From IMG/VR virus record IMGVR_UViG_3300029286_000049, positions 1 through 55,342 of that record: DNA of 55,342 nt, one strand, 5' to 3'. Positions within the stretch are counted from its first letter, which is position 1. Every line of letters begins with the position of its first letter. Shown in pieces: positions 14,975-40,167 of this stretch. Below the pieces are notes generated by a model. The model was not told where the DNA came from and did not search any database. It saw only the letters and a list, made by a program, of their open reading frames with translations. A program made the position numbers and the translations under genes. Source of the stretch: a virus.

Positions 14975-15006
14975 AAAGAAAAAGGCGAGATTTATCCTCG
15001 CCTTTT
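14975..15006 (-). terminator. Rho-independent terminator after methylase operon
   Basis: The minus strand reads GGCGAG-GATAAAT-CTCGCC then TTTTTCTTTT, a six-base-pair GC-rich stem with a T tract. It lies 27 bases after the stop of the methylase C-part at 15033. Confidence 0.88.
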
Positions 15007-15032
15007 CCGAAATACTTTATTTACCGCCGAAA

Positions 15033-16052
15033 TTAGAGATTTTCAAATATGTCTTGGTTCATATCCTTGTAATCTTTCAATGCCTGAATAGCCTTCTTCA
15101 TCCTGTTAACAGCTATCTGGAAATACTTAGGCTCTTTCTCTATCCCTACGAATCCTCTACCCGTAGAAAGGCAAGCAAGACCCGTTGTTCCAGATCCCAT
15201 AAACGGATCTAACACAACTCCGCCAGTAGGTGTCTTCGAAAGCTTCGTTAAGTATTCCATAACCTTAATTGGTTTAACTGTAGGATGCTCATTCCCATCT
15301 CCGCGTTCACTTCTACTCGCTTTGGCGCAATAGAAGAACCTAGATGCTCCTCCTTCGTCTCCATAAGTAATCTGAACATCACCTGCTTTCCCTAGTCCTC
15401 CATGCTCCATAAAAGAACCAGTTTGAGTCCTAGTGCAATTTGATCCAGACTTCAATACTCCACTCTGTTCATCAAGCATTCTAACAGGACAGCCTTCTAC
15501 ACAATCCCAATCTTCTACTGTTTCCATACCATCAGGACCAGCATGACCTCCGCATAACTCCACTTCTCTTCTGTAATGACCAGATTTGCCGTTATTATAC
15601 TTACCGCTAAACTTATCAGAAGTGTAATTGCAAGGCTTGTTGACTTGTCCCTTGACTTTTTTCATTCCCTTAAGTACGCAATCTGGAGAATGAGATAAAA
15701 TGAAGTTGGCTGGGAATCTCCCTTTGGAGCTTTCGCCATAAGGAGTCCCTTCGCCATTGTCATCAAATCCATCCCATCCATGACCTCTGGGTTTCTGCCA
15801 TTCCCATTGACCACCAGAACCGATTCTGCATCCATCAAGCCATAAACCGGCGACTCCATACTTCAAAGCATTCTCAGAAAATGTCCCCTCAATAGGTTTC
15901 ATTGCCATAATGATAGGTTCCCAAGCAGGTTTAAGAGGAGAAGATCTTAAAGTATGTACTTTCAAATCTTCTGGCATAACGAAAAGACCATCATCATCTT
16001 GAACTATATCATAATCTTTCCCATTATAATTTATTTTGTGTATCGTCGGCAT
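15033..16052 (-). CDS. DNA methyltransferase, C-terminal part (split gene)
   Basis: The 339-residue protein carries the second half of a beta-class DNA methylase (N4-cytosine or N6-adenine): RFPANFILSHSPDCV, SRFFYCAKASRSERG, EHPTVKPIKVMEYL and the SAM-binding motif VVLDPFMGSGTTGLA (about 280-294), then GRGFVGIEKEPKYF. It lacks the DPPY catalytic motif, which is in the part encoded at 16488-18194. Near its start LKPAWEPIIMAMKP repeats a segment also present at the end of the other part. An HNH gene lies between and overlaps its start by 29 bases. The two parts may assemble into one enzyme. Confidence 0.85.
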   Translation of the reverse strand: MPTIHKINYNGKDYDIVQDDDGLFVMPEDLKVHTLRSSPLKPAWEPIIMAMKPIEGTFSENALKYGVAGLWLDGCRIGSGGQWEWQKPRGHGWDGFDDNGEGTPYGESSKGRFPANFILSHSPDCVLKGMKKVKGQVNKPCNYTSDKFSGKYNNGKSGHYRREVELCGGHAGPDGMETVEDWDCVEGCPVRMLDEQSGVLKSGSNCTRTQTGSFMEHGGLGKAGDVQITYGDEGGASRFFYCAKASRSERGDGNEHPTVKPIKVMEYLTKLSKTPTGGVVLDPFMGSGTTGLACLSTGRGFVGIEKEPKYFQIAVNRMKKAIQALKDYKDMNQDIFENL

Positions 16053-16497
16053 TCTTATATACCTCCAGCGTTTCCAAAAATTTCATCAAATTTCTTATCT
16101 CTTGTAATGTTGCATTGCTTTTTAGCCTATTAGCTTTATGGCTCATTATCATAATGTTGCCTTTGACATATCCAAGCGATGGATCGATTCTGTCTAGCGA
16201 AGGACTATTATCTATCGGTCCATGTTTATCCGTATTATTACGATATAATTTTATGCCCAATACTGGACATATTTCTGGGATCTCCGGTATATCCTCCACT
16301 TTTATATCAAAAACAAAATTCTTTTTCTTGGCTCTCTTTTGCGCATCTAAATATATATCATATCTATTAGTTTTTGACAAACCATGAGTAGTATTCTGAC
16401 ATATTCGTGAACAATAATTATGAGAACATCTTCTTTGATGGGCTTTGCATCTATAGAACTTTTTACCGCAAATAGGGCAGGCGCAATTCATTTCCAT
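16024..16497 (-). CDS. HNH endonuclease between methylase halves
   Basis: The 157-residue protein begins with a zinc-finger-like CPICGKKFYRC...CSHNYCSRIC region and has an HNH-type core: CPVLGIKLYR, then SLDRIDPSLGYVKGN and IMIMSHKANRLKS. These features match phage HNH endonucleases of the homing kind. The start overlaps the methylase N-part stop (nine bases) and the end overlaps the C-part start (29 bases), so it is wedged exactly at the break. GGAG precedes its ATG. It is probably the element that divided, or that spreads with, the broken methylase gene. Confidence 0.82.
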   Translation of the reverse strand: MEMNCACPICGKKFYRCKAHQRRCSHNYCSRICQNTTHGLSKTNRYDIYLDAQKRAKKKNFVFDIKVEDIPEIPEICPVLGIKLYRNNTDKHGPIDNSPSLDRIDPSLGYVKGNIMIMSHKANRLKSNATLQEIRNLMKFLETLEVYKNADDTQNKL

Positions 16498-18194
16498 TTT
16501 ATTTCTCCGCTTACCCCACTTTCCCTTAATTTGATTTCTAATTCTTTCTGAACAGATTTAACCATATCCCATAAATCTGATATAGCAAATGGTTTCACTG
16601 CAACAATCACAGGTTCAAATGCAGGCTTTAGCGCTGTACCCCACCCATCCCAAAGCTTCGCATTATCAGTGGCAGGCGCAGTAATAAGTCCTGCTCCTTC
16701 AGATTTCAATTTGAAATCACCTACCTGACCATTCTGATGATTCTTCTCATTATTTGGGCGGATAGAAGAAACATCAATTCCAATTACTTCTCTTTCAACA
16801 CCAGCATCTTTGTCCATCTGCTTAGAAATGTCCAGACTTTTGGGAAATCCAGAATTACCAGTAATAAAGATTTTGCCATTCCTTCTTGCGACAAAAGCGC
16901 CAGTAGGAACCTGTACACACCAGACTTTTCCTTTATATTCTACTGGAGTTATTTCCGCCACAGAGGGAGAGGGAATCCTCTCGCCTCGTATAGTTTGTGA
17001 TCTTGATTGCTTGCAAATAACATCAGATTCATAATGTCGTTGTTTTCTGGATTGTGGTCCATATGGTGAACTGTCTCCGTTCTCAAAAGGCATCTCCCCA
17101 TCTCTTTCGCAACTATTAGGCGATGTTCCATAACATATCCGTCTTTCCTCGCCATCTGAATAAAGTCTTTCGGGCATCTGACATATTTTACTGGTTTGTA
17201 ATTGCCGTGTTTGCGGAAGTAAGTCACTCCTCCTTTCCAAGCCGGATTCAACGGTCCAGACATTTTCGCCGCAAAGCTGATAAAGCTCTGTGTAGTCCAC
17301 CCCGCAGCCCCTTTGTGACTGTGTTTTATAAGATCCTTTGCCCTCTCTTTCCCATTGCATTGAGTCGAGCATGTAGGATGCTTTACCCGTTTCAGCCAGC
17401 ACTTCTGCTTCCATATTTCTTTCCCGCAAACATGGCACTTTATTAAAATCATTCCCTTCAAATCTCTCGGATCTTTCTTCACTCGTTTCGATATGGCTGA
17501 TTTCATATTGCATTGCTGCGAACAAGTCTTGTTTCTTAATACTTGTGTGCGATTGAATGTCTGATATGGTTTCTGGCAAATCTCGCAGACTTTCCAGAAT
17601 GGGTACGCATATTTCTTGTTTTTGTGATGCTTCTTCAGCAAGTTCGAATAATAATTTTCCTTCTCGTTCAACAACGCAACGATGATTTCTGGAGACGAGC
17701 TGGTCTGTTTTATCTGATCTAATTCTGTAAGCGGTATATTTGTTATCATAATAGAAACTCCTTATTGGTTTATCAAAACAATACTCATTAGTTTCTATAT
17801 TATAACAAAGTACGAGATCATCCTTTATGTTTTTATGGTAGTGTACCCACCCATTACTTGTGAGTATCTCTGTATCTTCACTTAGACATCCATAAACCCA
17901 TTCAACACAATCTCTTATCTCCCATCCAGCATCCTCAATATCGCAAGCTAATCTATGAAATGTGCGAGTACCACCAAAACTAAATAGCATAGCGCCAGGC
18001 TTAGACGCATCTCTTACTGCATCCCAGAAGTCTTTACCGGGAACAGACTTATCCCATCCCTTAGACATAAAAACGATGCCGTAAGGCGGATCTGTCACGA
18101 CAGAGTCGATACTGTTCTTTTCTAATGTAGGTAATACTTCTAAACAATCGCCGCAATACAGAGTTATACCAAACTCTAACTCTACTTTCTCCAT
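16488..18194 (-). CDS. DNA methyltransferase N-terminal part, interrupted by intein
   Basis: The 568-codon frame encodes residues 1-102 of a beta-class DNA methylase (LYCGDCLEVLPTL; catalytic TDPPYG at 34-39; GAMLFSFGGTRTFHRLACDI), an intein at 103-447, and a C-extein at 448-568 beginning SGFPKSLDISKQMDKDAG. After splicing, 223 residues remain, ending soon after LKPAFEPVIVAVKP, so the SAM motif is missing and must come from the part at 15033-16052. The intein follows VEWVYG, a conserved methylase segment. AGGAG precedes the ATG. A second, out-of-frame gene is nested inside the intein. Confidence 0.88.
   Translation of the reverse strand: MEKVELEFGITLYCGDCLEVLPTLEKNSIDSVVTDPPYGIVFMSKGWDKSVPGKDFWDAVRDASKPGAMLFSFGGTRTFHRLACDIEDAGWEIRDCVEWVYGCLSEDTEILTSNGWVHYHKNIKDDLVLCYNIETNEYCFDKPIRSFYYDNKYTAYRIRSDKTDQLVSRNHRCVVEREGKLLFELAEEASQKQEICVPILESLRDLPETISDIQSHTSIKKQDLFAAMQYEISHIETSEERSERFEGNDFNKVPCLRERNMEAEVLAETGKASYMLDSMQWEREGKGSYKTQSQRGCGVDYTELYQLCGENVWTVESGLERRSDLLPQTRQLQTSKICQMPERLYSDGEERRICYGTSPNSCERDGEMPFENGDSSPYGPQSRKQRHYESDVICKQSRSQTIRGERIPSPSVAEITPVEYKGKVWCVQVPTGAFVARRNGKIFITGNSGFPKSLDISKQMDKDAGVEREVIGIDVSSIRPNNEKNHQNGQVGDFKLKSEGAGLITAPATDNAKLWDGWGTALKPAFEPVIVAVKPFAISDLWDMVKSVQKELEIKLRESGVSGEIKWK
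16854..17888 (-). mobile_element. Intein in methylase, HNH encoded in another frame
   Basis: The intein of 345 residues starts at Cys103 (CLSEDTEILTSNG, block A), has block B TDQLVSRNHRCVV (T-x-x-H), and ends with block F/G-like KGKVWCVQVPTG and GKIFITGN followed by Ser+1. The central in-frame region is unusual: rich in Glu, Arg, Ser and Gln, with no recognisable endonuclease. The +1 frame of the same DNA (16949-17749) encodes an HNH endonuclease. The intein frame stays open over about 800 bases of overlap, which implies selection on both frames. Confidence 0.9.
16949..17749 (-). CDS. HNH homing endonuclease nested out-of-frame in intein
   Basis: The 266-residue protein is encoded on the same strand as the methylase intein but in a different frame. 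It has two zinc-finger-like pairs (CEICQKPYQTF...CSQQC and CHVCGKEIWKQ...CSTQC), the motif GPLNPAWKGG, then an HNH domain: GYVMEHRLIVAKEMG, VHHMDHNPENND and NLMLFASNQDHKLYE. A strong AAGGAG lies eight bases before its ATG, inside intein coding sequence, so it can be translated independently. It probably cleaves intein-less methylase alleles and drives intein spread. It is too long and too well structured to be a chance shadow of the intein frame. Confidence 0.85.
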   Translation of the reverse strand: MITNIPLTELDQIKQTSSSPEIIVALLNEKENYYSNLLKKHHKNKKYAYPFWKVCEICQKPYQTFNRTQVLRNKTCSQQCNMKSAISKRVKKDPRDLKGMILIKCHVCGKEIWKQKCWLKRVKHPTCSTQCNGKERAKDLIKHSHKGAAGWTTQSFISFAAKMSGPLNPAWKGGVTYFRKHGNYKPVKYVRCPKDFIQMARKDGYVMEHRLIVAKEMGRCLLRTETVHHMDHNPENNDIMNLMLFASNQDHKLYEARGFPLPLWRK

Positions 18195-18206
18195 CTATAT
18201 CTCCTA

Positions 18207-18920
18207 TTAATGTGAATCAGTTCCACCTTTCCTAGCCAAATAATCTGCGCTGACAGCTTTCAAGATGATTCTACCATTCGTGCTAGTAGGAATCATAATC
18301 GGGTCAATCCTCTCAATGACAGGAGTGACAACAGCGCCCTCTCTACCTTTGAACTTGCCTACTACTTTATTCGGATCACAAAACGAAGTAGGACCAGAAA
18401 CAAGGTCTTCCAATACCTTTTTGCTAAATGGTCCACGATAAAGCAATGGGACCATCGGCACTTCGAATTTCAGGCAGAAAAACTTCTTTGCATCATAGCT
18501 CATATACCTTCTATTTACGGCAATGTCGAAGACTCTGGCAGTCTTTTCCTTCAATCCGTATTGCATATCCTGAACACCTGGACCTATCATCTCGCCAAAA
18601 ACGATAGCGCTGAATATGTCCTCTCCTGCATCATATGTCTTGATAATCTCATTCAACATATCTTTCATGTTCTGAGTAAAAATCATCCAGAACTTAGAAG
18701 GTATTCCCCTTGCATCAAACTCTTTCCTACGATTTTCATGGCTACCGGCACAAAGAGTCCAAATAGGTTTGCCACTCTCGTCTGTGTCGAGAACATTACC
18801 GAATCTTGCATTAGAATTATGTACTACTATTTTGTTTGCTACAAAATTATGTACATCTTCTATTACGAGATCCCAACGATCAAACTGTTCTTCTAAAATC
18901 TCTTTTTTTGTCAATCTCAT
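18207..18920 (-). CDS. RNA ligase C-terminal part with split-intein C-half
   Basis: Residues 1-35 are the C-half of a split intein (MRLTKKEILEEQFD...FVANKIVVHN), followed by Ser+1. From there the protein continues an RNA ligase just after active-site motif I: SNARFGNVL, then WTLCAGSHENRRKEFDARG, GEMIGPGVQDMQYGL, FCLKFEVPMVPLLYRGPF and EGAVVTPV (motifs III to V of the nucleotidyltransferase). AGAGG precedes the ATG. It must be joined by trans-splicing to the product of the gene at 19874-20836 to give a working enzyme of about 420 residues. A homing gene lies between the two parts. Confidence 0.9.
   Translation of the reverse strand: MRLTKKEILEEQFDRWDLVIEDVHNFVANKIVVHNSNARFGNVLDTDESGKPIWTLCAGSHENRRKEFDARGIPSKFWMIFTQNMKDMLNEIIKTYDAGEDIFSAIVFGEMIGPGVQDMQYGLKEKTARVFDIAVNRRYMSYDAKKFFCLKFEVPMVPLLYRGPFSKKVLEDLVSGPTSFCDPNKVVGKFKGREGAVVTPVIERIDPIMIPTSTNGRIILKAVSADYLARKGGTDSH
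18816..18920 (-). mobile_element. Split intein, C-terminal half
   Basis: Thirty-five residues, about the size of the C-half of the gp41-1 class of split inteins. The block G end is IVVHN followed by Ser. The block F region is LVIEDVHNFVANKIVV. Confidence 0.9.
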
Positions 18921-19821
18921 TTCTTATCCTCTCGATTTCTCGCTCTGGGTATTTTCTAAAATCACCATCCCACACAACAACGACACTATAACCATGTTTA
19001 TAGAAACAAGCTAGTCTGCGTCTATCTCTCTGCCACTGCTCTTTCACTGTCCTTTGTATAGCTGTAATATATTGATCTGGATTTTTATAACGTTTAGGAT
19101 TGCAATGGTATAAATCTCCATACATTTCTACAATAATTTTTAGATCATGATTTATTTCATCAGGGACAAAACCATGAAATACCTCTTCTGATACGAAGCC
19201 ATCATATACCTTGCTTTCTATCATCTTGTTTTTAAGTAAATCAGAAGATGTAGATCGGCTTTTCCCATAACTTTTACAAAAAGCATCTATGATGTGATTT
19301 TTAGTTTCATCATCATAATTTTCCCATACTTTTACCATTCTTTCTGATTTTCTTTTGCATATATCTTTGAACTTTTCCGAATCTTTTCTGAAATTATCCC
19401 ATTGCTTAGACACCGCACTTGATCTCATTTCTGAGCTTACTGCGTCACGAGCCATTTTGCTATAAATAATTCTCTGGTCTTTTGTAAAAGACGTTTGAGT
19501 GTTTTTCATTGTTTCAGAAGATATCTTTTTACAACAATCTTTACATACAGGACCGCCTTTTCTCTTATGTATTTTTTCCTTATACTTTTTAATAATGCAT
19601 CCATTCCCGCAGATCCTACATCCTATTTTAATAAGAGATTGACCATCTGGAGAATTCCTTATTTTATCATTATATTCTTTATTTTTTCTTTTCTCATCAT
19701 CTTTTCTACAAGATATACAAAGCGGACCTCCATGCTTAATAGCTTTTTCCAAAGACATAAATATATTTACTTCCGCATTACATTTTAGGCATTTACATAC
19801 TGCTATAATTCTTTTAGTCAT
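18880..19821 (-). CDS. Vsr/EDxHD-like homing endonuclease between split-intein halves
   Basis: I place the start at the ATG 19821 (MTKRIIAVCKC), preceded by AGGAG, rather than at an upstream in-frame ATG that lacks one; this gives 313 residues. The N-terminal part has several Cys pairs (CKCLKC, CISC, CRIC, CKDCC), suggesting zinc fingers. The C-terminal part matches Vsr-like endonucleases: KVYDGFVSEEV, IIVEMYGDLYHCNP, QWQRDRRRLACFYKHGY and VVVVWDGDF. This family is known from fractured genes where a split intein flanks an endonuclease gene (Dassa and colleagues, 2009). The end overlaps the ligase C-part by 41 bases. Confidence 0.85.
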   Translation of the reverse strand: MTKRIIAVCKCLKCNAEVNIFMSLEKAIKHGGPLCISCRKDDEKRKNKEYNDKIRNSPDGQSLIKIGCRICGNGCIIKKYKEKIHKRKGGPVCKDCCKKISSETMKNTQTSFTKDQRIIYSKMARDAVSSEMRSSAVSKQWDNFRKDSEKFKDICKRKSERMVKVWENYDDETKNHIIDAFCKSYGKSRSTSSDLLKNKMIESKVYDGFVSEEVFHGFVPDEINHDLKIIVEMYGDLYHCNPKRYKNPDQYITAIQRTVKEQWQRDRRRLACFYKHGYSVVVVWDGDFRKYPEREIERIRNEIDKKRDFRRTV

Positions 19822-19873
19822 AACAAATCTCCTATTTACACCGTATACATATATATACGGAGCAAAGTGAGAT

Positions 19874-20170
19874 TTATCCTTTATCAAAACTTTTAATTTC
19901 ATCATTTTCTGTTAAAAGCCCAGCACTTACCCATCCTCTATTAGATGTTAAAATCAGATGATCATCAGTACAGCAAATGAAATCTCCATTATCGAAATGC
20001 AATTTAATCCACTCCTTCGATTTATCTTGTCTCACAACATCTATAACTCTTTTTTCAACGAATTCATTTTTTTCTTGGTCAAAAGAAATTACATATTGAC
20101 CAGGTATTATCTCCGATATGTTTCTCTCTTCTCCATTAGCCAGCATTACTTTAGAGTCTTCTCTAAGGCA
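19874..20170 (-). mobile_element. Split intein, N-terminal half
   Basis: Ninety-eight residues from CLREDSKVMLANGEERN (block A) through a block B-like FICCTDDHLIL (T-x-x-H) to the stop after SFDKG. Size and layout match natural split intein N-halves. Confidence 0.9.
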
Positions 20171-20836
20171 TCCGTGAAGCTTTTCTGTAATTACAACTTC
20201 CTCGCCTTCTTTGATAACATCTGGGAAGTTAGCGAAATGTTCAATGTCGGTATACTTGTGGAAAAGCCTATGAGGTCTTTCGGCATCGCCATCGCAGCAT
20301 TCCATTGGAGGCTCCCACTTCGTAATTCCGAAATGTTCTTTTACATCAGTACCATCAACCCAATTAGGATCATCGCCTTTGTATGGATCGATATGGATGA
20401 TAAAACCAAAAGACTCTACTCCTCTCAAACGAGAAGCTTTAACTCTGCCTCCGGGTTGTTTCTCTCCGTCTGGAGTTTTAGGAAGCTCTGCGCAATAGTT
20501 CATAACACCCAATCTGCCGGGAGTTCCATCTTTCCATTGCAATTTCTCTCCGCAAATTACGCAAATGCCCTGTCCCGCATCAGACATCTTATTGAACATC
20601 TGACACTTTTCGTTTTTACAGACTTTCTCTGGACTGTTTGCCAATTTAGGCGGGAGAATGGAATCAGGCGGAAAATAAACACACAGATCGCCCTCATTAA
20701 ACTCTGCTCTTTGATGGACAGGATCATAACGAATGCAAGTTTTCCAACCCTTGACAGTGGCAATAGCAAGTTTATCTGCTGCCGGATGCTTTTCTACCTT
20801 ATCGACTTTACACACTTCAACTATGAGGCTACTCAT
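19874..20836 (-). CDS. RNA ligase N-terminal part with split-intein N-half
   Basis: I prefer the start MSSLIVEV at 20836 (or MIM at 20842), after GGGGGAAA; ten upstream in-frame codons are unlikely. The N-terminal OB-like domain (VEKHPAADKLAIATVKGW, GDLCVYFPPDSILP, SRLRGVESFGFI) resembles the DraRnl-type RNA ligases, with an extra Cys-rich insert (CKNEKCQMF...CVICGEK). The extein ends at EVVITEKLHG, the motif I K-x-x-G whose Lys is the adenylated nucleophile. The next residue is Cys1 of the intein N-half (98 residues). The split thus falls inside the active site, so no ligase can act before trans-splicing. Likely role: RNA repair. Confidence 0.9.
   Translation of the reverse strand: MSSLIVEVCKVDKVEKHPAADKLAIATVKGWKTCIRYDPVHQRAEFNEGDLCVYFPPDSILPPKLANSPEKVCKNEKCQMFNKMSDAGQGICVICGEKLQWKDGTPGRLGVMNYCAELPKTPDGEKQPGGRVKASRLRGVESFGFIIHIDPYKGDDPNWVDGTDVKEHFGITKWEPPMECCDGDAERPHRLFHKYTDIEHFANFPDVIKEGEEVVITEKLHGCLREDSKVMLANGEERNISEIIPGQYVISFDQEKNEFVEKRVIDVVRQDKSKEWIKLHFDNGDFICCTDDHLILTSNRGWVSAGLLTENDEIKSFDKG
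19876..19885 (-). promoter_or_regulatory. GATAAAGGAT element at end of split-intein N-half
   Basis: The element overlaps the last codons and stop of the ligase N-part and lies about 55 bases before the homing gene ATG at 19821. It is followed by GTATATATATGTATACGG. This suggests the homing gene has its own transcription start. Confidence 0.35.
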
Positions 20837-20903
20837 TATCATTTTCCCCCGAAATAGAAACGACACTTCCCCTAATACAACTTGTTATATTCTACCAGAT
20901 ATG

Positions 20904-20919
20904 ACCTTCACTTGAAGGT
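20904..20919 (-). repeat. Short perfect inverted repeat after ART-like gene
   Basis: ACCTTCA-AG-TGAAGGT on the minus strand forms a seven-base-pair hairpin starting at the stop codon of 20919-21968. No T tract follows, so it is not a standard terminator. AGAATATAAC lies just downstream and could be a -10 for the ligase gene. Confidence 0.4.
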
Positions 20920-21968
20920 TATTCACCATAATCGACAATAGAAATTCTGTGAATTGGGACTGTAGAACCTCCAACAGTGTGATACTGCTTTTCGCCGGGC
21001 ATATCAAGAGTTTTTGTAAGGTATTTAGGCTCAATAAATACTTGCCATACATCTCTTACAACATCTTGACCTTTCAGCTCAGAAGCTATCCCTCTTGCAT
21101 TGTTCAAATTGTCTGTAAGATATATATTAGATGGTAGACTTTGAGCATTCTCGTACATTCGCCTGTCTTTGACAGGACGAGCAGTGTACAATCTTATAGC
21201 CTTTTCTTCTTTCTGAGTAGAACCTGGCTCTTGTATCTCTTTAATCAAGTTAAAGTAATTAGCCCTCATTCTATCGTCGGCAAAGAAATCATTTCCTTCT
21301 GCGCCGTCTACAATGTCATCTATTATGATTTTCTGTCCGTCTCTATATAGCATAAAGTCTAAATAGGTCTTAGCAAATCTTACAGAAGATGTGCTTTGAG
21401 GCTCCATAAAGTTATCCTCTTTGTCTACAGTTCTTGCTTCTACTACAATCTGATAGCCTCCCCAATCTTGCACTCTTGGGACAGCAGACCTTACTAAATC
21501 TGCTATCTGTTGCATTTCTACAGTTGTTTTTTGTGATAGATCATCAATCATCTTACCAACAGCATTCTCGTCAAAAGCCTTATGATTCGGTCTAGATTGT
21601 CTTATCTGCTCTGCAACATCATGAAGGCTTCTGGCGGCTTGAAAGTATTTTTGTTGCTGTTCCCATCCTATCTTACCTTTCTGGTCTTTCAGAACATAAT
21701 CATATATTCTTGTGCCAAGAGAAGAAATCAGCCTATCATCTTTCTGTGTAAAAGCATTTTGCAGTTCTGTTATCATCTCGGCAGGTAAACCAAAAGATTG
21801 AAATTGAGAAATGTAAGAGTTGACATTTACATTCATTCTTGCTATTCTGTCTTGCTCAGACATTACATAAGCAGACAAATCGTAAAGCTGAATCTTCAAT
21901 GATTCAACATACTTATCAATGCTTACAGTGACGTTCGCATTGGCTTGAGATGTCTTATACCAGTTCAT
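20919..21968 (-). CDS. MNWYK-leader protein with possible ADP-ribosyltransferase-like C-terminus
   Basis: The 349-residue protein begins MNWYKTSQANANV. Residues about 15-170 are helical (VESLKIQLYDLSAYVMSEQ, SARSLHDVAEQIRQ-like). The C-terminal third, from about 255, has IRLYTARPV, SNIYLTDNLNNARGIAS and VWQVFIEPKYLTKTL, then STVPIHRISIV, which recalls the strand order of ADP-ribosyltransferase-like folds (R strand, T/S-D with Ala helix, V-x-V strand). Catalytic residues cannot be assigned with confidence. It is coupled by TAATG to the 75-residue gene upstream, in an operon with a GNAT gene that also carries the leader. Confidence 0.5.
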   Translation of the reverse strand: MNWYKTSQANANVTVSIDKYVESLKIQLYDLSAYVMSEQDRIARMNVNVNSYISQFQSFGLPAEMITELQNAFTQKDDRLISSLGTRIYDYVLKDQKGKIGWEQQQKYFQAARSLHDVAEQIRQSRPNHKAFDENAVGKMIDDLSQKTTVEMQQIADLVRSAVPRVQDWGGYQIVVEARTVDKEDNFMEPQSTSSVRFAKTYLDFMLYRDGQKIIIDDIVDGAEGNDFFADDRMRANYFNLIKEIQEPGSTQKEEKAIRLYTARPVKDRRMYENAQSLPSNIYLTDNLNNARGIASELKGQDVVRDVWQVFIEPKYLTKTLDMPGEKQYHTVGGSTVPIHRISIVDYGE

Positions 21969-22195
21969 TATTTAGCGGTTTCTATTCTCTCGATAATAGC
22001 GGGTTTCTCTTGATTCCATTTCTGGCTGAATGATCTAAGCAAACGAATAAGCTCTGAAGTATTAGTGACTCCATCACTCTGTAAGCCTAGAAGTAAAGAT
22101 TCTGCATTGACTATCACAGTATCCATTTTCTTGATTCGCTCTCTCTGTCTCATTTTCCATTGAGCATCTAATTGTGCTGTTCTGATGATTTTCAT
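21968..22195 (-). CDS. Small helical protein, MKIIRTAQ start
   Basis: The 75-residue protein begins MKIIRTAQLDAQW, a looser version of the leader (basic-x-A-Q near residue 7). The rest is one or two amphipathic helices (RQRERIKKMDTVIVNAESLL; LIRLLRSFSQKWNQE). It overlaps both neighbours by one base (TAATG on each side), so it is part of the GNAT/ART-like operon. No function known. Confidence 0.65.
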   Translation of the reverse strand: MKIIRTAQLDAQWKMRQRERIKKMDTVIVNAESLLLGLQSDGVTNTSELIRLLRSFSQKWNQEKPAIIERIETAK

Positions 22196-22668
22196 TATTT
22201 ACTCCTAGACGATATCATTATTATATGCTTACCAACTCTCTTCTTTACTCTCCATCCCTTCTTATCCAGAATATGCTTCATCACTGGAGAGACAACGTCT
22301 GCTTCCATCTTCAGATTAGGCATCATATCAAACTTATAGTTATTAAACTCTAATATAGCACTTTCTACGAGCTGTGAGCCTATTCCTTGACCTTGAGAAT
22401 TAGGATCGACTACTATATCAAAAGAAAAGACATCATTGATTATAGACGTATACAGAGCGCCTACGACCTTCCCTGAACTGTCTCTAACAGTCTGATTGAG
22501 TTCTTTGTCTCTCAGTATCCTGATTCCTGAGCTATTTGCTATCTGATCTGCTTGGTTAGCCAAATCAGAATGATCGACATCTTCATATCCATCTTCATAA
22601 AACCCATCTGGGCTATGTGGAGTGAATCTATATTCTTCATTCGCCGCAATTTTCTTGTACCAATTCAT
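22195..22668 (-). CDS. GNAT-family acetyltransferase with MNWYK leader
   Basis: The 157-residue protein begins MNWYKKIAANEEYRF. A GNAT fold follows: GKVVGALYTSIINDVFSFDIV then VDPNSQGQGIGSQLVESAIL, the Q/R-x-x-G-x-G/A acetyl-CoA loop, and a C-terminal strand GWRVKKRVGKHIIMI. It probably transfers an acetyl group from acetyl-CoA to a protein or small molecule. The N-terminal leader lies about 70 residues before the recognisable GNAT motifs. It is the first gene of a three-gene operon, with an AAAGGAAA element upstream. An effector role is inferred from leader and context. Confidence 0.8.
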   Translation of the reverse strand: MNWYKKIAANEEYRFTPHSPDGFYEDGYEDVDHSDLANQADQIANSSGIRILRDKELNQTVRDSSGKVVGALYTSIINDVFSFDIVVDPNSQGQGIGSQLVESAILEFNNYKFDMMPNLKMEADVVSPVMKHILDKKGWRVKKRVGKHIIMISSRSK

Positions 22669-26817: not shown

Positions 26818-26859
26818 ATTTATGATTGCTATTCCAACGTCTTCGTATATTACTTGCCA
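26818..26859 (-). pseudogene. Apparent remnant of capsid gene 3' region
   Basis: In the frame overlapping the homing gene's stop the minus strand reads WQVIYEDVGIAIIN, against WVIYEEIGIAIIN near the C-terminus of the major capsid protein (28030-28090). The DNA differs mostly at third codon positions, the pattern of a diverged homologue. The frame continues to a stop at 26782 without further likeness. It suggests the homing gene arrived with, or replaced, part of a capsid gene. Confidence 0.5.
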
Positions 26860-27842
26860 AAATGCTTCTTTATCTCTTCGATATGCTCTGGCAAAAACCT
26901 TGGCTTCCCCTTCTCTGTCGCCCTATAACACCCAATCTTCCCAACCTTCACAAGATATGCTAAATGAGTATAATCAATCCCTAACTCCTCTGCAACTTCA
27001 CTCATTCTCTTCGCGGCGAATCTCCACTCAGGTATATCAAACTTGTAATCATAACATTTAACTGGAGACTTCCTGCCAATAAAGTCAAAGAAGGCAGGAA
27101 TGCCTTTGGCATCAATCTGGATGCGATTATACCCGTTCTTATGGCATTGGATACCCTTATCCATTAAACGCGCCACAAGGTATTCTACGCCTTCTGGTGC
27201 GAATCCGTCTGTAGATAAACGCAATACAATAGTGTTATTCTGACAGACAACAGATCCATCTCCAAGATACCACATCATAACTGACTTAGGAGTTATGCGA
27301 ACATCTTGAGGAGGGTACTTTACTCTTTTTCCCGCGGAATTTTCTGGATACCATCGCATGTATTGATGATAAAGATCTGGATGAAACTTACTACTTCCAC
27401 ACCATACAAAGCCTTGCTTCATTTTGTTGCTATTATATTTATCTACCGTTGGTCGATACTCACAAAAACAATTCATAAAATAACGGCAAAATTCCTCATG
27501 CTCTAAACCGCATCTAAGCCTTGCCGAATGTATATCTTTATTGGACGCAAGACCAATACAGCCATCACCTATTAGAAACCCGTCAATAGATTCTATCAAG
27601 TTCTCAGATAAATATGATATATTATAATCTAATGGATTAGGATCTTCATTTCTTTTCCCCTCAGATATGCTTCTGCCGAAACCAAGCTTCTTAGCATACT
27701 TGTATACTGTTCCTATTGCTACGTTCTTCCCCTGTTTCTGCAACATTTCTGATATATCAGGAAAGGACATCCTTTTCGCGACGTAATACTCTTTGAAAAA
27801 CTCTTCTGTCAATAACTCTAAATAATGCGGTTGTTCTCTCAT
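26850..27842 (-). CDS. Free-standing LAGLIDADG homing endonuclease next to capsid gene
   Basis: The start at 27842 (MREQPHYLELL) follows GGAG; an ATG six codons earlier is less well placed. The 330-residue protein has an N-terminal helix-turn-helix-like region (MSFPDISEMLQKQGKN, GTVYKYAKKLGFGR), two LAGLIDADG-type motifs (SIDGFLIGDGCIG and MMWYLGDGSVV), and a C-terminal DNA-binding segment (RMSEVAEELGIDYTHLAYLV) like a second helix-turn-helix. It lies directly downstream of the major capsid gene, and its 3' end overlaps a short capsid-like remnant, so the capsid gene may be its target. Confidence 0.88.
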   Translation of the reverse strand: MREQPHYLELLTEEFFKEYYVAKRMSFPDISEMLQKQGKNVAIGTVYKYAKKLGFGRSISEGKRNEDPNPLDYNISYLSENLIESIDGFLIGDGCIGLASNKDIHSARLRCGLEHEEFCRYFMNCFCEYRPTVDKYNSNKMKQGFVWCGSSKFHPDLYHQYMRWYPENSAGKRVKYPPQDVRITPKSVMMWYLGDGSVVCQNNTIVLRLSTDGFAPEGVEYLVARLMDKGIQCHKNGYNRIQIDAKGIPAFFDFIGRKSPVKCYDYKFDIPEWRFAAKRMSEVAEELGIDYTHLAYLVKVGKIGCYRATEKGKPRFLPEHIEEIKKHFGK

Positions 27843-27902
27843 ATATTTCTCCTTATGCAAGATTATACTGCCTATACAATCACATTATCGGTAAATGGGG
27901 AA

Positions 27903-27993: not shown

Positions 27994-28881
27994 TTAAGCA
28001 GGATGGGCAGATGAGGCGGGTACAGTGACTTTTGCTATTGCATAGTCATTGATGATCGCGATTCCGATCTCCTCATATATCACCCAGCCCAAGCGAAGTT
28101 TCTTAGGATCGTCAGCAGGAAGTACGGTGATGTCCTGTCTGATTGGGAAAGCGCCTACCGTGTCAGGTGATGCAACTACCAATACGGTATCAACCGGCAT
28201 ACGAGAGCTGACGTGGATGTCAGCAGTCCAAAGGTGACCAAACAATCCAGTCGTGATAATCTCACGCTGAGATGCTTCGTCATAGAACTCTTTTCCGAAA
28301 AGACGAACCGCTGCGAACTGACGAGCATGCATGACGATCTTGGTGCAAACGAGGTCATGTCTCTCGATGTAGTAGTAAGCATCGTTCATGCTTTCTGGGG
28401 TGAGTACGTCGCCAGTCTCGACAACGATCTGATCGCCTCTTGCGTCAACAGCAGCCAACAAAGCGCGGAAGATATTTGTATCTTCCTCTTTCTGAATGGC
28501 TTCTTTTGCCTTGATTTGGGCACGATCTACAATGTAGAATCTACGTGCCTTAATCTCGGAAAGCTTAACTGTTGGGTGAGCTGCGATTTCGAAGGTCGGG
28601 ACAAGCACCTCTTCGCCCTCTACGAACATATCAGGTACAGCGCCTTTGCGGGCAACAACGTGTGCGATTGCAGCCGGATCTCTCTCGTAACGAGCAAGTG
28701 CGCCCTGTGGGAGTTCGTCTACCATAAGTAGCTTACGACCTACAGCCTGGTATTCCAAAGCGCGTCTAATTGGCTCGACCATAGCCTGTGCCAATGCAAC
28801 ACGCCCTTCTTCTGTCTCCATTGCCTGCGCAATGATTTCCTCTTTCTCTTTGTCTGTCAATGAATTCTTTGCAAATGCCAT
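27994..28881 (-). CDS. Major capsid protein, HK97-like fold
   Basis: The 295-residue protein has an N-terminal helix (EKEEIIAQAMETEEGRVALA), then VEPIRRALEYQAVGRKLL, a Pro-containing E-loop-like stretch (EVLVPTFEIAAHPTVKLSEI), a helix of ALLAAVDARGD and a C-terminal RLGWVIYEEIGIAIINDYAI-type segment typical of HK97-fold capsid proteins, where a final strand reads G-x-x-I-x-N-x-x-A-I-x-x-V. Codon use is markedly more G/C-rich at third positions than in neighbours, as expected for a very highly expressed gene. AGGAG precedes the ATG. It follows protease-scaffold and decoration genes, the standard head-module order. Confidence 0.8.
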   Translation of the reverse strand: MAFAKNSLTDKEKEEIIAQAMETEEGRVALAQAMVEPIRRALEYQAVGRKLLMVDELPQGALARYERDPAAIAHVVARKGAVPDMFVEGEEVLVPTFEIAAHPTVKLSEIKARRFYIVDRAQIKAKEAIQKEEDTNIFRALLAAVDARGDQIVVETGDVLTPESMNDAYYYIERHDLVCTKIVMHARQFAAVRLFGKEFYDEASQREIITTGLFGHLWTADIHVSSRMPVDTVLVVASPDTVGAFPIRQDITVLPADDPKKLRLGWVIYEEIGIAIINDYAIAKVTVPASSAHPA

Positions 28882-36346: not shown

Positions 36347-36838
36347 TTACGTTTTAACGTGTCTTGGAATGTTTACATTAGCAAGATCGTGCAATGTATA
36401 GTTCCTTTGATTCTGTGGATAAGACAAACCCCACATCTCTACGGCGTGACTCAATGCGCTAGCTATAGTGCTGAAGTATTCTCCGCTAGGCGCATATATC
36501 TTCTTCCTTTTCCATTTTGGAGGCAATCTTTTGATACCAGAGAAGAATCTCTTCTTACCCTGTTTGGTTAATGCCGGTCCTACAATAATGAAATAATCTG
36601 CATCTGTAGTATAATCATGACCTTCCCATCTGTAGTAAGCGCCTTGACCTATATCTCTGTCAAACCTTATCTTCAAGTCATCAGACTTCTCGCGGTATGC
36701 TTCTTTCCAGTCTATACCACGGTCTTTAATCCTTTTGCGACTTGCATCTTTAATTAAAGAATCTATGTCTACATAAGCCTTATGCAAACCAGACATTTGC
36801 CTATCTGTACTTATCATAGATTTGTGCAAATTAAACAT
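36347..36838 (-). CDS. Uncharacterised head-region protein
   Basis: The 163-residue protein begins MFNLHKSMISTDRQ, a loose version of the leader. It is basic in the middle (RKRIKDRGIDWKEAYREK) and has a compact C-terminal domain (DYFIIVGPALTKQGKKRFF, SGEYFSTIASALSHAVEMWG). Its ATG overlaps the portal stop by one base (TAATG), so it is coupled to the portal gene. No family recognised. A portal-associated or head-completion role is a guess from position. Confidence 0.65.
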   Translation of the reverse strand: MFNLHKSMISTDRQMSGLHKAYVDIDSLIKDASRKRIKDRGIDWKEAYREKSDDLKIRFDRDIGQGAYYRWEGHDYTTDADYFIIVGPALTKQGKKRFFSGIKRLPPKWKRKKIYAPSGEYFSTIASALSHAVEMWGLSYPQNQRNYTLHDLANVNIPRHVKT

Positions 36839-39800
36839 TATTTAGTCCCTATTAGGTAAACACATCCAAGGTTATTAGGAAGAATCTCTTTATCAATTAT
36901 CACATTCTCTTGGTTAATATAATCTAAGATTATATGACCAGCAGCAACTTTAATCATACTGAAATCTGCATCAGCGGCTTTGACTCTTTTTCTCTTTTCT
37001 TTTTCAGCAGCACTCAATTGCTGATATATAACTTTCTGCACTTCTGCTGGTGAATCCTCTATGGCGTTCTCATTAAATCTCATTATTCTCCATCCAATGT
37101 TAGCCAGCTTCACATCTCTAGCTTTGTCTCTAGCTTTTGATTCAGCATCTTCATGCCATTTCTGACCATCTGCCTCTATGCCAACGCCGACAGCAGGATA
37201 AGCAAAATCTATATTGAAAGGAAATTGTTGTCCTGGGACTTGAACCTTGTATTGACCATATAAGTTATACGGGACTTTCATGCCGCTCAACATATTATAC
37301 ATCTGAGACTCAAGCTTAGTCAGAGCCAAAGGCATCTTAACAGACTTAGCCTTTTGTTGCTCTTGCATCTGCTCCATAAACGATTTGCCACCTTTGCCTC
37401 TCTTAGTGACCTTGAAACCTTCTGCTGCCGCAGGCATTCCAGGTGCTCCGCCAGGAGCGCCACCCATGCCTCCTCCCATACCTCCCATACCTCCCATACC
37501 TTCCATGCCTGGAGCGCCACCCATTTCTCCGCCAGGTGCGCCGGGAGCGCCGCCAGGTGCGCCAGGCGCGCCGCCACCGCCCATATCCATAGGAGCGCCA
37601 CCGCCTCCTCCGCCCATGCCTCCCATACCGCCACCTTCTTGTCCACCAAGTTGACCTTGAGGACCAGCCATAATCATCTCTTCTCTTATCTTCTGAAGCT
37701 CATCATCATAGCTAAGACCAAACTCTTTAAGAAGCGTATCATTAGAAACAAGACCTTTATCATTCATTTGCATAAACATCTGCATCTTATTAGAATTGTC
37801 TCTAAGGTTAAGATCATTCCATTTGATAGTTGGCTTGAGCCATACTTCTTCTCCAACCATTTCAGATTCTTCATCGTCCCTAAAACCTTGCATCATAGAA
37901 ACAGGCAGGAAGATATGTTGCTCAATCCATTCACTTAAAATGTTTTGCCATCCCTGTAAACGGCGTATCAAAGCTTCGACACCAACCTGAGCACTTCCCC
38001 ACGCTGGACCTTCACCATTTAAAAGGCTCTGGTTCAACATCATCCCGTCAAGAATCTCTTTTCCAATAGCATCCATTTCGGCAGTTATATTATGTATCTT
38101 TCCAGAATTTCCCTGAATAGCAATCTTTCCATTACGCATAGTCACGAAGAATCCAGTAGAAGTCTCGAAACACCATACTTTGCCTTTATAGTATTCTTTA
38201 GAAACATGATCATCTTTTATTCTTGGGAAACGACCCTTTCCGTTATCTGTCATATTACAATTAATTACATATTGCTTACCTTTTCTATACTGACTTAGCA
38301 CAGGTGATAATCCGCATTTAAACAAGACTTCTAGCATATCATCGGCTAAATTTTTACTATTAGTCCCTGCTTGAATTGCGAAAGATTCATCATATACATA
38401 TTTTGATGCGTCTCCCTTGCAATACGCCTCTGCCAAAATCATAAGTTTTTCAGGAGGCAAATTCTTTATCCAATTGGGAATTTTCTTTTCATTAGAATTA
38501 TGACCAAACCATTCACCTATTTGCCTTGCTACATCCTTCATCAAAATGTTCCATGTTGTGGCTCTACCTTCATAGGCATATTTACTAAACTTCATGCCAA
38601 GCGAAGGCATAATTTCATCTATTTCTTCACAGTATTCTGGGTTGGCGGATGGAGACTGACCTATCGAAACTATATAACGTCGTTTCTCAGGCTTAAATTC
38701 ACAATGTCCCTCTGATAAATAATACCCGGCAAATCTTAGAAAATCATCTATTGGGACTTTATATCCACAAACATCAATTTCTTCAACCACCTGCTCTGCT
38801 GAATCATATTCCGCAACGCATCTTACATATCTATCACATTCATTTATAATAGCGAAATCTTTAGCTTGCATAGTATAAGCAGTTTTAAGATCTCTTTTAT
38901 ACCCAAGCATTTTATGACTAGGGGTTACTAACATATCCATTTTATTGCCGAAAAACTTAACCATTTCCCCATCATAATCATATTCATGAAGCTTTAATGG
39001 TTTTTCATATCTCATTTTGCCTGTTTTAGAATCAAATACCATTATCTCATCATCTGCTGTAACTTCCCAATAATTCTTCCAGCCAGATTTACATAAAGCC
39101 TTGGTATCACTAGAGTTACACGCCCCAAACCATTCGTACTCGAAAGCGTGGTGAGTGATCAATGTAAGATTAGGATCATTCGCTACAGCAGATAGCTGTG
39201 CGGATACATCTGCGATGTCATCAGGAGTAGCAGGACGTTCTTTGTCACCGATCTTAACTACTCTTACTGGAAGCACAAGTCTTTCTGCTATAATCCAGTT
39301 TGCAGTCATTAACTTTGTCTTATAAGCGAGAATAGTAAACAATCTACGAAGCATAGACGTACCATACACGCCATAAGGGGCGGCATTATGTCTTAAATGA
39401 CTTATACAGCGATTTGACAGCGGGATAGGTAATCCACTAACAATCATACCAATAATCTTTGGTGGAAGCCTCTTATAGATTTGTTCTGGTTTCTTTCTCT
39501 GAACAAGCATTCTCAGCTCTTCATCTGGGATAAGTGAGAAAACTGGTTCAGGAGCAAGTGAGTTTTTCTGAGCTTCAATCCAGTCAGGATTCAATATAAC
39601 GATTCTCTTTATTTTTCCGCCAGGATGTCTGCAAGACTCGCCTGTTGGAAGAACGCCGCCACCGCCGCATATTGGGCATTCCATCTCAATAAACGGAAAT
39701 ACGTCGCCAATCATATGATACTCATGACTAATGTATTTAAGAATTGCATTCAACTGTAAGTCCTTCACAAGCTTCTCGAAGAACTTCAAAACTTTCTTAT

Positions 39801-40167
39801 CTTTGCACTCTAGCTTAAACCCGTTAATTGGGAAGTGACCATAGAAATCTATGGCGGCAGCTACTTTAGGTTCATTCTCATAATAGAATCTAGCCCATTG
39901 ATAGCATTCTCTTCTTTTAGAAGCAATCTGCCAGTTTTGCGGAGTATGAAGGGGGCTAAAGAACATGGGCTGTGTCATTGTGACATTAGCACCTGATCCA
40001 GCAAATTGAGAATACTTAGTAATAGGCACTTTGACCGTATCGCTAGTAGTATATTTCATATTCCTAGAATAGCCGCTAGAATCGCCTCTAAAAGAACCAG
40101 ACGCTGCGGTTAATATATTTCTGACTTTCTCAGAGCGTTTATCAAGAACGTTAAACTTAATGGGCAT
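36838..40167 (-). CDS. Portal protein with intein and C-terminal nuclease-like domain
   Basis: The 1109-codon frame encodes a portal protein (RRECYQWARFYYENEPKVAA, HMIGDVFPFIE, NRCISHLRHNAAPYGVYGTS, WIIAERLVLPVRVVKIG) cut at residue 349 by an intein (350-687), then the rest of the portal (GEGPAWGSAQVGVEALIRRL, WIEQHIFLPVSMMQGF). After a Gly/Met/Pro-rich linker (about 837-917) comes a domain at about 949-1052 like DUF559/Vsr-type nucleases: FNIDFAYPAVGVGIEADGQK, then WHEDAESKARDKARD and GWRIMRFNENAI. After splicing, 771 residues remain. AAGGAG precedes the ATG. A CPICGGGGVLPTGESC loop (about 164-179) may bind zinc. Confidence 0.87.
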   Translation of the reverse strand: MPIKFNVLDKRSEKVRNILTAASGSFRGDSSGYSRNMKYTTSDTVKVPITKYSQFAGSGANVTMTQPMFFSPLHTPQNWQIASKRRECYQWARFYYENEPKVAAAIDFYGHFPINGFKLECKDKKVLKFFEKLVKDLQLNAILKYISHEYHMIGDVFPFIEMECPICGGGGVLPTGESCRHPGGKIKRIVILNPDWIEAQKNSLAPEPVFSLIPDEELRMLVQRKKPEQIYKRLPPKIIGMIVSGLPIPLSNRCISHLRHNAAPYGVYGTSMLRRLFTILAYKTKLMTANWIIAERLVLPVRVVKIGDKERPATPDDIADVSAQLSAVANDPNLTLITHHAFEYEWFGACNSSDTKALCKSGWKNYWEVTADDEIMVFDSKTGKMRYEKPLKLHEYDYDGEMVKFFGNKMDMLVTPSHKMLGYKRDLKTAYTMQAKDFAIINECDRYVRCVAEYDSAEQVVEEIDVCGYKVPIDDFLRFAGYYLSEGHCEFKPEKRRYIVSIGQSPSANPEYCEEIDEIMPSLGMKFSKYAYEGRATTWNILMKDVARQIGEWFGHNSNEKKIPNWIKNLPPEKLMILAEAYCKGDASKYVYDESFAIQAGTNSKNLADDMLEVLFKCGLSPVLSQYRKGKQYVINCNMTDNGKGRFPRIKDDHVSKEYYKGKVWCFETSTGFFVTMRNGKIAIQGNSGKIHNITAEMDAIGKEILDGMMLNQSLLNGEGPAWGSAQVGVEALIRRLQGWQNILSEWIEQHIFLPVSMMQGFRDDEESEMVGEEVWLKPTIKWNDLNLRDNSNKMQMFMQMNDKGLVSNDTLLKEFGLSYDDELQKIREEMIMAGPQGQLGGQEGGGMGGMGGGGGGAPMDMGGGGAPGAPGGAPGAPGGEMGGAPGMEGMGGMGGMGGGMGGAPGGAPGMPAAAEGFKVTKRGKGGKSFMEQMQEQQKAKSVKMPLALTKLESQMYNMLSGMKVPYNLYGQYKVQVPGQQFPFNIDFAYPAVGVGIEADGQKWHEDAESKARDKARDVKLANIGWRIMRFNENAIEDSPAEVQKVIYQQLSAAEKEKRKRVKAADADFSMIKVAAGHIILDYINQENVIIDKEILPNNLGCVYLIGTK
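37012..37323 (-). other. DUF559/Vsr-like nuclease domain fused to portal
   Basis: Residues about 949-1052 follow the pattern E-x-x-M/L...Y-x-x-Q-x-x-V, F-x-x-D-F-A-Y, G-x-x-I-E-A-D-G-x-x-W-H, a K/R-D repeat helix, then G-W-R-I-M-R-F. Candidate catalytic residues are Asp in NIDF, Glu in IEADG and His in KWH. It is in frame with the portal and separated only by a flexible linker. Confidence 0.7.
38107..39120 (-). mobile_element. LAGLIDADG intein in portal protein
   Basis: The intein of 338 residues starts at Cys350 (CNSSDTKALC), has block B-like MDMLVTPSHKML (T-x-x-H), endonuclease motifs FAGYYLSEGHCE and LAEAYCKGDAS, and ends GKVWCFETSTGFF then GKIAIQGN before Ser+1. Extein residues on either side (EYEWFGA and SGKIHNI) join smoothly. 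Confidence 0.92.

What the first reader, a model, noticed from the sequence alone, without database searches (positions are those of the whole stretch)
18207..20836. RNA ligase fractured inside its active site by a split intein with a Vsr-like homing gene between
Seen: the ligase N-part ends at motif I EKLHG and continues as a 98-residue intein N-half; the C-part starts with a 35-residue intein C-half then SNARFG, the rest of the motif I region. Between them is a gene with VEMYGDLYHCNP and VVVVWDGDF. Known: fractured genes with split inteins and this endonuclease family were described by Dassa and colleagues in 2009 for other phage genes. New here: the host gene is an RNA ligase of DraRnl type, and the break sits beside the nucleophile lysine, so activity strictly depends on trans-splicing.
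Basis: partly seen in the sequence, partly recalled or inferred. Interest (0 to 1): 0.75.

Follow-up and report, generated by a model that had tools for sequence, protein, structure and literature searches.

The report
Phage RNA ligase split by intein
A phage RNA-repair enzyme is encoded in two pieces that probably join themselves through a protein-splicing element, with a selfish DNA-cutting gene between them; the arrangement is of a known kind, but the RNA-ligase active site turns out to be a recurrent landing spot for such elements.

Summary
On the minus strand an Rnl5/DraRnl-like RNA ligase is cut directly after motif I (TEKLHG). The N-part ends in a 98-aa intein N-half. The C-part begins with a 35-aa intein C-half ending VVHN|S. 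Between them lies a separate gene, in a third frame with its own ribosome-binding site, for a Vsr-like/EDxHD-type homing endonuclease. All class-1 splice residues and ligase motifs are intact, and joining the halves in silico raises both ligase and intein profile scores. Best explanation: a fractured gene of the kind described by Dassa et al. (2009), rebuilt by protein trans-splicing; splicing itself is inferred.

Same-site inteins are not unique to this window. They occur in six cultured Omegavirus mycobacteriophages (contiguous; near relatives have the empty site) and as about eleven distinct IMG/VR inteins, including a second complete fractured ligase with endonuclease (L146/L165), a split one without it (L184/L167), a mini-intein (L183) and a decayed sister (L119). 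A NAD+ DNA ligase is fractured at the equivalent point (L082). I found no paper on a split-intein RNA ligase, but the library is partial and lacks Dassa et al. Verdict: new member of a known kind.

The parts
20171..20836 (-). RNA ligase N-part (222 aa): OB-fold N-terminal domain plus start of the nucleotidyltransferase domain, ending at motif I TEKLHG
   Evidence: PF21189 1e-10 and phrog_968 3e-27; TIGR02306; 45% identical to intact ligase L012
19877..20170 (-). Intein N-half (98 aa), Cys1, block B CTDDH
   Evidence: TIGR01445 35.1 bits above cut-off; PF14890 profile 1-92
19874..19876 (-). Stop codon of the N-part
19828..19833 (-). Shine-Dalgarno-like AGGAGA of the endonuclease gene
   Evidence: sequence
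18880..19821 (-). Free-standing Vsr-like/EDxHD-type homing endonuclease gene (313 aa; Cys-rich N-terminal region, C-terminal nuclease domain with E232, D236, H239, N241, P242, D266)
   Evidence: invariant columns in 30 relatives; NCBIfam vsr 0.014; profile hits 3hrl 6.7e-5, I-Bth0305I 3r3p 0.082, Vsr 0.16-0.26; homologues between intein halves in other phages
18928..18933 (-). Shine-Dalgarno-like GAGAGG of the C-part, inside the end of the endonuclease gene
   Evidence: sequence
18816..18920 (-). Intein C-half (35 aa), ending HNFVANKIVVHN; its start overlaps the end of the endonuclease gene by 41 bp
   Evidence: TIGR01443 19.2 bits above cut-off; PF14890 profile 130-155; overlap also in other fractured loci
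18210..18815 (-). RNA ligase C-part (202 aa), first residue Ser+1; carries the remaining ligase motifs (FGEMIG, VFDIAV, REGAVV, ILKAVS)
   Evidence: PF09414 4.2e-13; alignment A3
18207..18209 (-). Stop codon of the C-part

Best explanation
This is a fractured gene: an Rnl5/DraRnl-like phage RNA ligase made as two polypeptides carrying complementary halves of a class-1 split intein. The halves associate, Cys1 and Ser+1 carry out trans-splicing with Asn cyclisation, and the exteins are joined as TEKLHG-SNARFG, rebuilding the adenylyltransferase domain directly after the nucleophile lysine. The free-standing Vsr-like endonuclease between the halves probably cuts intein-less ligase alleles near this conserved motif-I codon stretch, so that repair copies the whole split-intein and endonuclease cassette. 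Shown here: the ORFs, frames, junction, splice residues, intact ligase motifs, same-site empty and filled alleles in relatives, and recurrence of the cassette type. Inferred: expression, splicing, ligase activity, DNA cleavage and homing.
For: Both halves pass curated intein models and the joined halves score higher. Joined exteins match the full RNA_ligase profile. Intact relatives read straight through the point as TEKLHG|KNCR, TEKIHG|TNFR etc.; of 48 IMG/VR loci, none with a readable motif I has an intein there. Omegavirus phages show exact filled and empty alleles (Bobby QKLHG|C...VHN|SSIRVG; Thibault QKLHG|TSIRVG; Courthouse QKLHG|SSSRVG), with joined Bobby exteins aligning to both with few gaps. 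L146/L165 have the identical three-gene layout in another RNA ligase. L082 has it in LigA. Homologues of this HEG sit just upstream of a separate-ORF intein C-half in about 28 of 50 distinct IMG/VR loci by my reading. The HEG end overlaps or abuts the intein C-half start in window, L146, L082, L085, L138, L064 and L116.
Against: No experiment. The joined ligase falls below the TIGR02306 equivalog cut-off (129.3 against 151.15 bits). Sequence similarity of the intein to NrdJ-1 and gp41-1 is weak. No close allele of this exact cassette was found with which to test selection; the nearest copy (L119) is decayed.
Confidence: 0.86

Rival explanations
1. A decaying element: the intein no longer splices and this phage's ligase is dead.
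For: A related copy in L119 is clearly decayed: truncated intein N-half, 38-residue endonuclease remnant, ligase core deleted. L144/L154 carry a frame break in a same-site intein.
Against: In the window Cys1, the block B TxxH, the block F/G HNF...HN and Ser+1 are all kept; no stop or frame break in any of the three ORFs; ligase motifs intact; ribosome-binding sites before the HEG and the C-part.
Confidence: 0.08
2. A contiguous intein with an in-frame endonuclease that looks split because of sequencing or assembly errors.
For: Metagenomic contig; L144/L154 show that single frame breaks occur in such records.
Against: Three different frames, separate starts with ribosome-binding sites before the HEG and the C-part, and the same three-ORF layout in unrelated contigs L146, L165 and L082.
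Confidence: 0.03
3. The insert is removed at RNA level as an intron carrying a homing gene.
For: EDxHD enzymes are listed among the families of group I intron homing endonucleases, with I-Bth0305I as the example (PMC3943268). Ligase relatives L053 and L056 carry long inserts at another site, the L053 one with a GIY-YIG-like ORF.
Against: No Rfam match reaching its cut-off in 15000-22000; intein halves flank the break exactly at KLHG|C and HN|S; no intron is needed.
Confidence: 0.02
4. The two parts work as a non-covalently complemented two-subunit ligase without splicing.
For: Natural two-piece enzymes exist, e.g. a ribonucleotide reductase split by a HEG (cited in PMC10448857).
Against: Unspliced, 133 intein residues would sit three residues from the nucleophile lysine; all splice residues are conserved, which this model does not need.
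Confidence: 0.03

Closest known systems
Fractured genes with split inteins and Vsr-like endonuclease (Dassa et al. 2009, NAR 37:2560, PMC2677866; text not held, described from knowledge and from citing papers)
   Same: Enzyme gene cut in two, split intein halves at the break, free-standing endonuclease of the same type between them, phage context
   Different: Host gene is an RNA ligase cut beside its nucleophile; to my recollection the listed hosts were helicase, RNR, IMPDH and polymerase genes. I could not check the original table.
L146/L165 (IMGVR_UViG_3300028377_000003, 3300011189_000001)
   Same: Complete fractured RNA ligase at the same site, with IntN, Vsr-like HEG and IntC
   Different: Intein splice domain only 22% identical to the window's; ligase from another branch
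L119/L179 (IMGVR_UViG_3300005976_000005)
   Same: Nearest copy found: same site, IntN 41% over 51 aa, HEG fragment 67% over 27 aa
   Different: Decayed: intein and HEG truncated, ligase core missing
Omegavirus (cluster J) mycobacteriophage RNA ligase intein (Bobby gp147 and five others)
   Same: Same insertion point KLHG|C...HN|S
   Different: One ORF, contiguous 357-aa intein whose long middle looks like a LAGLIDADG domain
L082 (IMGVR_UViG_3300043003_000065), fractured NAD+ DNA ligase LigA
   Same: Break after motif I KLDG, split intein, same HEG type; closest complete intein in my set (34%)
   Different: DNA ligase; +1 residue Cys
gp41-1 and NrdJ-1 split inteins
   Same: Same intein family; PDB sequence hits 8ubs 5.9e-7, 6qaz 0.0011
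   Different: Other host genes; weak sequence similarity

Membership tests
Fractured gene with split intein and free-standing HEG (Dassa 2009) | Conserved enzyme gene interrupted into two separate ORFs | tested here: met
Fractured gene with split intein and free-standing HEG (Dassa 2009) | Complementary intein N- and C-halves at the break, residues intact | tested here: met
   TIGR01445, TIGR01443 above cut-offs; joined PF14890 48.4 bits
Fractured gene with split intein and free-standing HEG (Dassa 2009) | Free-standing endonuclease gene between the halves | tested here: met
   Own frame, ATG and SD; same layout in L146, L165, L082
Fractured gene with split intein and free-standing HEG (Dassa 2009) | Trans-splicing gives the joined enzyme | not testable with these tools
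   needs co-expression
Vsr-like / EDxHD homing endonuclease | Conserved acidic/His signature (E..D..H...D) | tested here: met
   E232, D236, H239, D266 invariant in 30 relatives; the assignment of these columns to the EDxHD motif is mine
Vsr-like / EDxHD homing endonuclease | Sequence or fold match to I-Bth0305I or Vsr | tested here: inconclusive
Class 1 intein | Cys1/Ser1, block B TxxH, terminal HN, C/S/T +1 | tested here: met
   C223, TDDH, VVHN, S+1
RNA ligase (Pfam PF09414) | Curated gathering score | tested here: met
   joined exteins 71.6 bits, cut-off 27
DRB0094/DraRnl equivalog (TIGR02306) | Curated equivalog cut-off 151.15 bits | tested here: not met
   joined exteins 129.3 bits; hence called DraRnl-like, not filed as the equivalog

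The most novel reading that the evidence does not exclude
Motif I of polynucleotide ligases is a cross-family hotspot where selfish split inteins persist because two-gene expression plus trans-splicing sets when an RNA-repair ligase becomes active during infection, i.e. the split has been taken up as a control step.
Probability: 0.06. Interest if true: 0.75.

Novelty: new member of a known kind. Interest (0 to 1): 0.42.

Why it matters
The RNA-ligase motif-I site offers, at one residue position, a series of empty, LAGLIDADG-type, mini, split with HEG, split without HEG and decayed inteins in phages. That makes it a good natural set for testing how split inteins arise and decay. The new split inteins from ligases are candidates for protein-joining tools, and fractured ligases are easy to assay because activity should report splicing.

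Tried and rejected
Single-sequence scans of viral contigs with each of the three genes found nothing; alignment-based and motif-pattern scans worked. The genome contigs pattern scan gave no ligase that I could recognise. An RNA intron was rejected: no Rfam match reaching its cut-off. A frameshifted contiguous intein was rejected. A tree of splice domains did not place the window intein firmly (long branch, open forks), so I do not claim from which intein it was derived. Dassa 2009 and Carvajal-Vallejos 2012 are not in the paper library. Some IntC motif hits downstream of HEGs were spurious (L100, L101, L125) and are not counted.

Full report
What is there. On the minus strand, 20836-19874 encodes a 320-aa protein, 19821-18880 a 313-aa protein and 18920-18207 a 237-aa protein, in three different frames. 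AGGAGA precedes the endonuclease start and GAGAGG the C-part start; a weaker candidate, GGGGGA, precedes the N-part ATG. The first protein is the N-terminal half of an RNA ligase (OB-fold domain PF21189; phrog_968 RNA ligase, 3e-27) followed by an intein N-half from residue 223. The third is an intein C-half of 35 aa followed by the rest of the ligase (PF09414 4.2e-13). Joining the exteins in silico gives a match to PF09414 from profile position 1 to 171 (71.6 bits against 50.2 for the C-part alone). Joining the intein halves gives 48.4 bits on Intein_splicing, above its cut-off of 35.8, which neither half reaches alone. The residues needed for class-1 splicing are present: Cys1, TDDH, HNFVAN...VVHN, Ser+1.

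Relation to the ligase. In relatives the protein reads straight through the break point. The nearest intact ligases, L012-L014 (42-45% identical over the N-part), read TEKLHG|KNCRVG or close variants. Of 48 IMG/VR loci found through the ligase N-part, none with a readable motif I has an intein at this point. The lysine of motif I is three residues before the junction, so the adenylyltransferase domain is divided between the two polypeptides. That an unspliced pair would be inactive is inference. The joined ligase does not reach the TIGR02306 equivalog cut-off (129.3 of 151.15 bits), so I call it DraRnl/Rnl5-like rather than DraRnl. The N-part also matches the Naegleria RNA ligase structures (2.6e-9).

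The gene in between. An alignment of 30 homologues keeps D221, E232, G235, D236, H239, N241, P242, D266 and W284, consistent with the EDxHD signature of the family exemplified by I-Bth0305I (family named in PMC3943268). Matches to solved relatives are weak: 3hrl 6.7e-5, I-Bth0305I 3r3p 0.082, Vsr 0.16-0.26. In IMG/VR, 50 distinct homologues were examined. About 28, by my reading of the automatic table after discarding three spurious motif hits, lie just before a separate ORF that begins with an intein C-half. Host genes recognised by eye include gp41-like helicase, polymerase B, ribonucleotide reductase and DNA ligase. The end of the endonuclease gene overlaps or abuts the start of the intein C-half in window (41 bp), L082 (31), L064 (17), L085 (14), L146 (8), L138 (1) and L116 (gap of 1), which suggests translational coupling.

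A hotspot. A pattern scan for [VI]TEKxHGC in IMG/VR gave 49 stretches, most of them ligases (many simply with Cys at that position), and seventeen contigs with an intein at exactly this point, about eleven distinct inteins. They fall into forms. (a) Contiguous inteins of 353-364 aa in L141, L171 and duplicates, L151 and L170; their middle parts contain LGDG...MDDGS motifs that look like LAGLIDADG, although I did not run a domain search on them. (b) A 141-aa mini-intein in L183. (c) Split with Vsr-like HEG in L146/L165. (d) Split without HEG in L184/L167. (e) A frame-broken copy in L144/L154. (f) A decayed copy in L119/L179. (g) Copies cut by contig ends in L166 and L180. Among cultured phages, six Omegavirus mycobacteriophages carry a contiguous 357-aa intein there; about forty related records match the two flanks only, and Thibault and Courthouse show the empty site QKLHG|TSIRVG and QKLHG|SSSRVG. 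On the ligase tree, intein-bearing and intact ligases are interspersed. On the splice-domain tree L146, L184 and L183 group together (99/98) and the LAGLIDADG-type inteins tend to group, while the window intein is a long, poorly placed branch. This suggests at least two and perhaps three separate invasions of the site. The nearest copy to the window element is L119 (IntN 41% over 51 aa, HEG fragment 67% over 27 aa).

DNA ligase parallel. L082 is an NAD+-dependent DNA ligase (TIGR00575 2.1e-52) fractured after KLDG of its motif I, with the same endonuclease type between the halves. Its intein is the closest complete one in my set (34%). Breaks beside the nucleophile lysine are therefore not peculiar to this window.

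Known and new. Fractured genes with split inteins and this endonuclease type were described by Dassa et al. in 2009 (cited in PMC7090010 and PMC11766414); the paper itself is not held. Searches for split intein with RNA ligase, mycobacteriophage intein with RNA ligase, and intein with NAD-dependent DNA ligase found no description of such a case. The mycobacteriophage intein survey PMC5050341 does not contain the word ligase. Absence from an open-access subset is weak evidence of novelty. I file this as a new member of a known kind, with the same-site series as its most useful feature.

What is shown and what is inferred. Shown: sequence anatomy, residue conservation, comparative filled and empty sites, recurrence of the cassette. 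Inferred: expression, trans-splicing, ligase activity, endonuclease cutting and homing.

Noticed in passing
16488-18194 (-) with 16949-17749 (-): DNA methyltransferase with a contiguous intein-like insert (WVYG|CLSED...FITGN|SGF) whose middle is overlapped by a 266-aa HNH endonuclease ORF in another frame. An out-of-frame HNH in a phage DNA methylase is already reported (Applejack, PMC12613952). The in-frame middle matches LR756508 over its full length at 31%.
   Followed up: partly
15033-16497 (-): A small HNH-like ORF (16024-16497) separates the methyltransferase N-part from an ORF (15033-16052) with its C-terminal motifs; an LKPAxEP segment is present on both sides, so the methylase looks broken with a repeated segment.
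   Followed up: no
36838-40167 (-): Portal protein with an intein-like insert and, at its C-terminus, a DUF559/MTES_1575-type nuclease domain (PF04480 32.7 bits, cut-off 20.6): an unusual portal-nuclease fusion.
   Followed up: no
50884-53880 (-): Terminase large subunit with a LAGLIDADG intein (PF14528 6e-19).
   Followed up: no
26850-27860 (-): LAGLIDADG endonuclease gene (phrog_11023) next to the major head protein 27994-28881; the window carries at least six homing-type elements.
   Followed up: no
window 20490-20625 (-), ligase residues about 72-115: Cys-rich insert (CKNEKC...CVIC, zinc-ribbon-like) in the ligase N-part, absent from the nearest intact ligase L012.
   Followed up: no
L082:1618-4934: NAD+ DNA ligase LigA fractured at motif I KLDG|C...HN|CSVGM with a Vsr-like HEG between.
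   Followed up: partly
L119:2247-3190: Decayed copy of the same cassette in another phage's RNA ligase: the ligase core is deleted, so that ligase is probably dead, or the contig is mis-assembled.
   Followed up: partly
L053:517-2100 and L056:3962-5700: RNA ligase relatives interrupted at a different place, between the OB-fold and nucleotidyltransferase domains; the L053 insert has a GIY-YIG-like ORF, possibly an intron.
   Followed up: no
L011:1709-4944: Prevotella phage Lak-A1 DNA polymerase B fractured, with a Vsr-like HEG and an intein C-half; the phage's altered code was not taken into account.
   Followed up: no
20919-21968 and 22195-22668 (-): Two unrelated-looking proteins upstream of the ligase both start with MNWYK.
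   Followed up: no
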